Origin: Chloroflexota bacterium
GTDB taxonomy: Bacteria > Chloroflexota > Limnocylindria > Limnocylindrales > CSP1-4
Direction: 5' to 3'
Assembly: GCA_003152165.1 (NCBI GenBank)
Contig: PLZO01000013.1
Location: forward strand, 1 to 53,217
Length of the DNA stretch: 53,217 nucleotides
In this document: piece by piece, positions 27,296 to 27,586 of the stretch
Layout of the letters: every line of letters begins with the position of its first letter
Numbering within the stretch: the stretch's first letter is position 1
Made by a program: the position numbers and the translations under genes
The notes under the pieces: generated by a model
The model's input: the letters and a program-made list of their open reading frames with translations, nothing else
Told to the model about the DNA's origin: nothing
Databases searched by the model: none

Positions 27296-27586
27296 CTAGT
27301 GAAACTCGTCGCGTTCGATCGGTGGACCGAGTCTGGCCGCAACGAGGCCATGCACCTCTCCCGGGCGGGGATGTCGGTTGAGGGCCGCCTTCGAGAAGAG
27401 CAGCTCGCCATCGAGCGTCACTTCGAACCGGCCGCCGCTGCTCGGCAACAACGTCGCGCGGGCGATCCGTGGCGCCCACGCGTTGAGGAGCTCAGCCGCC
27501 AGACCGGTGGCTCGATCGGTGTAGTTTCAGACGACGCAGAACTCGACCTCGAGATTGTGCGGTCGGTCTGTCGGCTCAGCCTTCAT
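27296..27586 (-). CDS. Rdx-family (SelW/SelT/SelH-like) thioredoxin-like protein with in-frame UGA at the CxxU position: candidate selenoprotein
   Basis: MKAEPTDRPHNLEVEFCVV[UGA]NYTDRATGLAAELLNAWAPRIARATLLPSSGGRFEVTLDGELLFSKAALNRHPRPGEVHGLVAARLGPPIERDEFH*; UGA at 27529..27527; ends in TAG. Confidence 0.75.
27494..27512 (-). promoter_or_regulatory. Bacterial SECIS-like hairpin downstream of the UGA
   Basis: mRNA AGCCACC-GGUCU-GGCGGCU: six base pairs with one A.C mismatch, 5-nt loop; loop begins 22 nt after the UGA. Confidence 0.5.

What the first reader, a model, noticed from the sequence alone, without database searches (positions are those of the whole stretch)
27296..27586. Unlisted candidate selenoprotein: Rdx/SelW-like gene with UGA exactly at the redox CxxU position
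Seen directly: on the minus strand a 96-codon frame from ATG 27586 to TAG 27296 has a single internal stop, TGA at 27529..27527, in the context EVEFCVV-UGA-NYTDRATGLAAELL. The rest (TLLPSSGGRFEVTLDGELLFSKAALNRHPRPGEV) matches the Rdx fold shared by SelW/SelT/SelH, where this residue is the second Cys or Sec of CxxC/CxxU. A random nonsense mutation would have about a 1-in-96 chance of hitting this codon. Standard ORF calling splits and drops the gene. Inference: it encodes Sec. Caveat: this window is rich in pseudogenes and the neighbouring merR is frameshifted, so a decayed Cys codon (TGC/TGT to TGA) remains possible.
Basis: partly seen in the sequence, partly recalled or inferred. Interest (0 to 1): 0.88.

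Follow-up and report, generated by a model that had tools for sequence, protein, structure and literature searches.

The report
SelW-like bacterial selenoprotein gene, confirmed
This is a small redox-protein gene whose apparent internal stop codon almost certainly codes for selenocysteine, a real selenoprotein that gene callers miss but one that belongs to a family known in bacteria since the mid-2000s.

Summary
The minus-strand frame 27586..27296 is an Rdx/SelW protein (Pfam 63 bits; predicted fold matches solved SelW-family structures) with one TGA at the CxxU position. The host genome has tRNA-Sec, selA, selB, selD and a UGA-containing formate dehydrogenase on one contig. A second, diverged copy elsewhere in the same genome keeps the TGA. 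In 95 Rdx loci sampled from the phylum this codon is TGA in 65 and Cys in 30, never anything else; all 30 relatives found in named genomes also have TGA. TGA genomes nearly always carry selA (95/96). Downstream of the UGA lies a bacterial SECIS-type hairpin with loop GGUCU, the same loop as in the host's formate dehydrogenase; its pairing and loop G are missing in Cys homologues. So it is very unlikely to be a decayed pseudogene, although its SECIS stem has one A-C mismatch. Novelty is low: SelW-like is one of 25 bacterial selenoprotein families listed in 2006 and the most abundant in marine metagenomes. No protein-level proof was possible. Mildly new: two copies plus a 46-bp remnant in a genome whose genus-mates lack the gene.

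The parts
27296..27586 (-). SelW-like (Rdx) selenoprotein gene, 96 codons, ATG 27586 to TAG 27296
   Evidence: Pfam Rdx 63.3 bits; TIGR02174; AlphaFold model pLDDT 88, best PDB matches 2fa8, 2obk, 2oka, 3dex SelW-related proteins
27527..27529 (-). in-frame UGA, read as selenocysteine at the CxxU redox position (residue 20)
   Evidence: TGA in 65/95 sampled phylum loci, Cys in the other 30; TGA in 30/30 named-genome relatives
27496..27510 (-). SECIS-type hairpin core: stem CCACC/GGCGG (one A-C mismatch), loop GGUCU at 27505..27501, 21 nt after the UGA
   Evidence: pairing and loop G conserved in UGA genes and not in Cys genes; same GGUCU loop after the UGA of the host's fdhA; fold -9.3 to -10.7 kcal/mol but not clearly below shuffles as a single sequence
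27587..27620 (-). upstream stretch of about 34 bp shared, one base apart, with the second copy on contig C49; carries a TAAGGT hexamer shortly before the ATG that could be a -10 box (inference)
   Evidence: blastn of the two loci ends here; its 22-bp core GGCCTCGCGGCGTAAGGTACGG occurs only at the two copies in the genome

Best explanation
The locus is a functional SelW-like (Rdx family) selenoprotein gene of a Chloroflexota bacterium. Shown: intact Rdx frame, UGA at the CxxU site, complete Sec machinery in the host, conservation of UGA across relatives, and a conserved hairpin at bacterial SECIS distance. Inferred from established bacterial Sec decoding: the ribosome meets UGA 20, SelB with GTP and Sec-tRNA-Sec is recruited by the hairpin 21 nt downstream through its GGUCU loop, and Sec is inserted. 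The product is a 96-aa thioredoxin-like protein with a C-V-V-U thiol/selenol pair between strand 1 and helix 1. It most likely acts as a thiol-dependent redox protein, as proposed for SelW; its substrate is unknown.
For: Rdx membership and fold. Sec machinery on contig C65: tRNA-Sec 69.9 bits with UCA anticodon, selA 435 bits, selB with GTPase and wing domains in a 678-aa ORF, selD 330 bits, fdhA with one in-frame TGA. Second copy on C49, 93% identical over 322 bp, dN 0.053, dS 0.150, TGA kept and frame open. TGA or Cys only at the site in 95 loci; 30/30 TGA in named genomes of Chloroflexota, Actinomycetota, Gemmatimonadota, Dormibacterota and Latescibacterota. selA in 95/96 TGA genomes against 32/44 Cys-only genomes, Fisher p 3e-6. 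SECIS: 5/5 pairs in 45/64 UGA genes, 0/29 Cys genes; in the length-trimmed set 43 observed against a synonymous-codon null of 9 on average, 21 at most; loop G in 90/90 against 10/29.
Against: The window copy's hairpin has an A-C mismatch in the middle pair and folds no better than shuffles on its own, though four other UGA genes (L136, L138, L140, L146) share that mismatch. The three genus-mates lack the gene. The neighbouring merR is frameshifted. The host is a fragmented metagenome bin, so C49 might be from another strain. No protein data.
Confidence: 0.95

Rival explanations
1. The gene is a decayed Cys-type Rdx pseudogene in which TGC/TGT became TGA by chance.
For: Frameshifted merR next door; a 46-bp remnant of a further copy elsewhere in the genome; weakened SECIS stem; genus-mates lack the gene.
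Against: The rest of the frame is intact; the second copy and more than 90 relatives have the same TGA; the nearest relatives in the tree are TGA forms, so the ancestor was very likely already TGA; between-copy dN/dS 0.35.
Confidence: 0.03
2. UGA is reassigned or read through generally in this organism (for instance as Trp or Cys), so nothing Sec-specific happens.
For: In-frame UGA in the SelW genes and fdhA of the genome.
Against: The C49 copy of this gene itself ends in TGA used as its stop; table 11 gives normal long frames in the window; the in-frame UGAs found sit at known Sec sites (SelW, FdhA) and are followed by a SECIS-type hairpin.
Confidence: 0.01
3. The C49 copy is the working gene and the window copy is a duplicate losing Sec insertion, because its SECIS stem has an A-C mismatch.
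For: A-C at the middle pair (27508/27498), while C49 has A-U there.
Against: C49 has its own mismatch (C-A at the outer pair). The A-C pair also occurs in four UGA genes of Gemmatimonadota and Anaerolineales. The loop GGUCU, which equals the host's fdhA loop, is kept.
Confidence: 0.1

Closest known systems
Bacterial SelW-like selenoprotein family (Pfam Rdx PF10262 / TIGR02174, CxxU)
   Same: Rdx fold, CxxU with UGA at the same codon, bacterial SECIS just downstream, Sec machinery in the host; listed among 25 bacterial families (PMC1794560) and the most abundant marine one, 427 Sec against 56 Cys forms (PMC2398784)
   Different: Lineage: a branch in Chloroflexota nearest to Acidimicrobiia and Chloroflexi GWC2_73_18 sequences; present twice in this genome
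NCBIfam NF041051 SelTWH_Campy
   Same: Best NCBIfam score, 73.6 bits over 13-82
   Different: Below the 88-bit cut-off, so not that equivalog
Solved bacterial SelW-related proteins 2fa8, 3dex, 2oka, 2obk
   Same: Same fold, TM-score 0.73-0.78 by query length; 26-33% identity
   Different: 2fa8 has CxxC where this has CxxU (alignment); other phyla
Mammalian SelW (2npb)
   Same: Rdx fold with CxxU
   Different: Distant (21% identity, TM 0.61); eukaryotic SECIS lies in the 3' UTR

Membership tests
SelW-like (Rdx) selenoprotein | Rdx domain over the curated cut-off | tested here: met
   PF10262 63.3 bits against 22.6; TIGR02174 49.8 against 34.2
SelW-like (Rdx) selenoprotein | CxxU motif with UGA at the second redox position | tested here: met
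   CVVU, TGA aligned with Cys of homologues
SelW-like (Rdx) selenoprotein | Thioredoxin-like fold, redox motif between strand 1 and helix 1 | tested here: met
   E10-17, CVVU 17-20, H23-37, pLDDT 88; PDB matches. Modelled with Cys for Sec
Bacterial selenoprotein | Host has selA, selB, selD and tRNA-Sec | tested here: met
[quoted passage not shown]
   Loop GGUCU, spacing 21 nt, MFE -9.3 to -10.7 meet it; the 5-pair stem is broken by one A-C, so the stem criterion is met only if a mismatch is allowed
Bacterial selenoprotein | Sec present in the protein | not testable with these tools
   needs 75Se labelling or mass spectrometry
NF041051 SelTWH_Campy | score over 88 bits | tested here: not met
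   73.6 bits

The most novel reading that the evidence does not exclude
The SelW-like gene with its short upstream stretch spreads as a minimal unit: two live copies in unrelated settings with homology stopping at the gene's ends, one 46-bp remnant, no copy in genus-mates, and nearest relatives partly in another phylum, which would point to repeated transfer of a selenoprotein gene into hosts already able to use Sec.
Probability: 0.15. Interest if true: 0.35.

Novelty: new member of a known kind. Interest (0 to 1): 0.22.

Why it matters
It confirms that a frame which standard gene calling drops is very probably a real selenoprotein, and shows that SelW-like selenoproteins are common in Chloroflexota (about two thirds of listed Rdx hits carry UGA) yet close homologues are stored in databases mostly as fragments of about 67 aa. 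The comparison also shows an RNA signal shaping the protein: the residue eight after Sec always has a codon with G in the middle (Gly, Ser, Arg or Trp) in Sec forms, not in Cys forms.

Tried and rejected
Single-sequence folding as proof of SECIS: z between -0.4 and -1.8, not decisive, so the comparative test was used. RNAalifold on the ungapped set of 90 returned no structure, perhaps because about 11 sequences use a shifted hairpin and many closing pairs break; I did not pursue this, so the SECIS claim rests on the named-pair counts and the Cys control. Two hairpin registers: a second register as I first wrote it (loop at nt 21) was not supported, but the outliers do have 6-7 bp hairpins with CGUGA or GUG loops a few bases earlier. 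General UGA reassignment was rejected because the second copy stops at TGA. Literature searches for SelW with Chloroflexi found nothing specific beyond the 2006 survey.

Full report
Observation. The minus-strand frame is exactly as described: ATG at 27586, a single internal TGA at 27529..27527, TAG at 27298..27296, 96 codons. Read with Cys for the UGA it is an Rdx domain protein by Pfam (63.3 bits, cut-off 22.6) and by TIGR02174 CXXU_selWTH (49.8 bits, cut-off 34.2). An AlphaFold model (pLDDT 88) has the strand-CxxU-helix start and matches solved SelW-related proteins 2fa8, 2obk, 2oka and 3dex. Table-11 gene calling sees only other overlapping frames there.

Host. The window is a 53-kb contig of a 3.6-Mb, 92% complete bin. 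A relative of the same family is Chloroflexi bacterium GWC2_73_18 (locus L119 lies on a 40,562-base contig, the same length as G018:C29, with identical protein), so the host is taken to be Chloroflexota. Contig C65 holds tRNA-Sec (69.9 bits, anticodon UCA), selA, selB (678-aa ORF with GTPase, domain 2 and SelB winged-helix domains), selD, and a formate dehydrogenase alpha gene with one in-frame TGA. The organism can therefore be expected to decode UGA as Sec.

Second copy. C49:2693-2908 carries another Rdx gene with one TGA. The two are 93% identical over 322 bp, from about 34 bp upstream of the ATG to near the stop, and unrelated outside. Nineteen codons differ; dN is 0.053 and dS 0.150 (ratio 0.35); the TGA and the following AAC UAC are unchanged. 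The C49 copy ends in TGA as a true stop, which speaks against general reassignment of UGA. A 46-bp, 87% identical piece of the gene's 3' end on C74 looks like the remnant of a third copy. Three genus-mates have none of this, and among the 36 sampled family members only G018 has the gene, with TGA. Since most family members keep selA, loss or transfer of the SelW gene is independent of the Sec trait.

Relatives. In 399 genomes of the phylum, 186 have Rdx; the stops found inside listed hits are one TGA each, never TAA or TAG. I extracted 95 loci: the codon at the site is TGA in 65, TGC in 26, TGT in 4, nothing else. All 30 relatives in named genomes (Chloroflexota, Acidimicrobiia and other Actinomycetota, Gemmatimonadota, Dormibacterota, Latescibacterota) have TGA. 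Among listed genomes selA is present in 95 of 96 with a TGA gene and 32 of 44 with only Cys genes (Fisher p 3e-6; the one exception, G363, is a 77% complete bin; genomes are related, so p is only indicative). The tree (48 columns, many forks weak) puts the two window-genome copies beside a group of Acidimicrobiia and GWC2_73_18 sequences, nearly all UGA; UGA was thus probably ancestral for this branch.

SECIS. Aligned on the UGA, the relatives share a hairpin with a 5-bp stem (nt 19-23 with 29-33, counted from 0 at the U of UGA) and a 5-nt loop: 45 of 64 distinct UGA genes form all five pairs, 0 of 29 Cys genes; with codons redrawn among synonyms 9 were expected (maximum 21 in 500 draws) against 43 observed in that length-trimmed set. 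I chose this register after looking at the sequences, so the Cys genes are the better control. The second loop base is G in 90 of 90 UGA genes and 10 of 29 Cys genes. Loop, spacing (21 nt) and energy agree with the published bacterial model (G in the first two loop positions, 16-37 nt; PMC13188914). The window's loop is GGUCU, identical to the loop after the UGA of the host's own fdhA (GUCGCC-GGUCU-GGCGAC). The window stem has one A-C mismatch; the C49 copy has A-U there but a C-A at the outer pair; four other UGA genes have the same A-C. Alone, the window hairpin is not clearly more stable than shuffles.

Known or new. SelW-like selenoproteins were reported in the Sargasso Sea (48 genes, the largest family; PMC1088965), in the 2006 survey of bacterial genomes (PMC1794560), as the most abundant family in GOS (PMC2398784), and are in the 2022 review table as pfam10262 CxxU (PMC9312934). 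This gene is a new member of that family. Its close homologues in protein databases (80-95% identity) are nearly all about 67 aa long, beginning at a start codon around codon 30, after the UGA, which explains why it seems unlisted; that these too have UGA upstream is inference, since their DNA was not seen.

Mechanism and limits. Sec insertion by SelB at the hairpin is inferred from the family and the host's machinery; redox action through C17-U20 is inferred from the motif and the fold. The physiological substrate is not established here. The window bin is fragmented, so I cannot prove that both copies sit in one cell.

Noticed in passing
window 27698-28124 (-): MerR-family regulator split between two frames: HTH in 27825-28124, MerR-DNA-bind part in 27701-28066; a true frameshift or an assembly error just upstream of the selenoprotein gene.
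   Followed up: partly
L149 1501-1546 (genome contig C74:14875-14920, -): 46-bp remnant, 87% identical to the 3' end of the SelW gene including its stop: trace of a third copy.
   Followed up: partly
L064, L073, L076, L080, L081, L087, L088, L123, L135: These SelW UGA genes have a hairpin a few bases nearer the UGA (6-7 bp, loops CGUGA or GUG) instead of the common register, so one family seems to use two SECIS registers.
   Followed up: partly
UGA-type SelW loci, eighth codon after Sec: Middle base of this codon is G in 90/90 Sec genes (Gly, Ser, Arg, Trp) but 10/29 Cys genes: the SECIS loop constrains the protein sequence.
   Followed up: partly
L115 (genome contig C65:48564-53444): selD and a UGA-containing fdhA sit on the same contig as selA, selB and tRNA-Sec; the fdhA SECIS loop is also GGUCU.
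   Followed up: yes
window 26173-27120 (+): SIMPL/DUF541 domain protein convergent with the selenoprotein gene.
   Followed up: no
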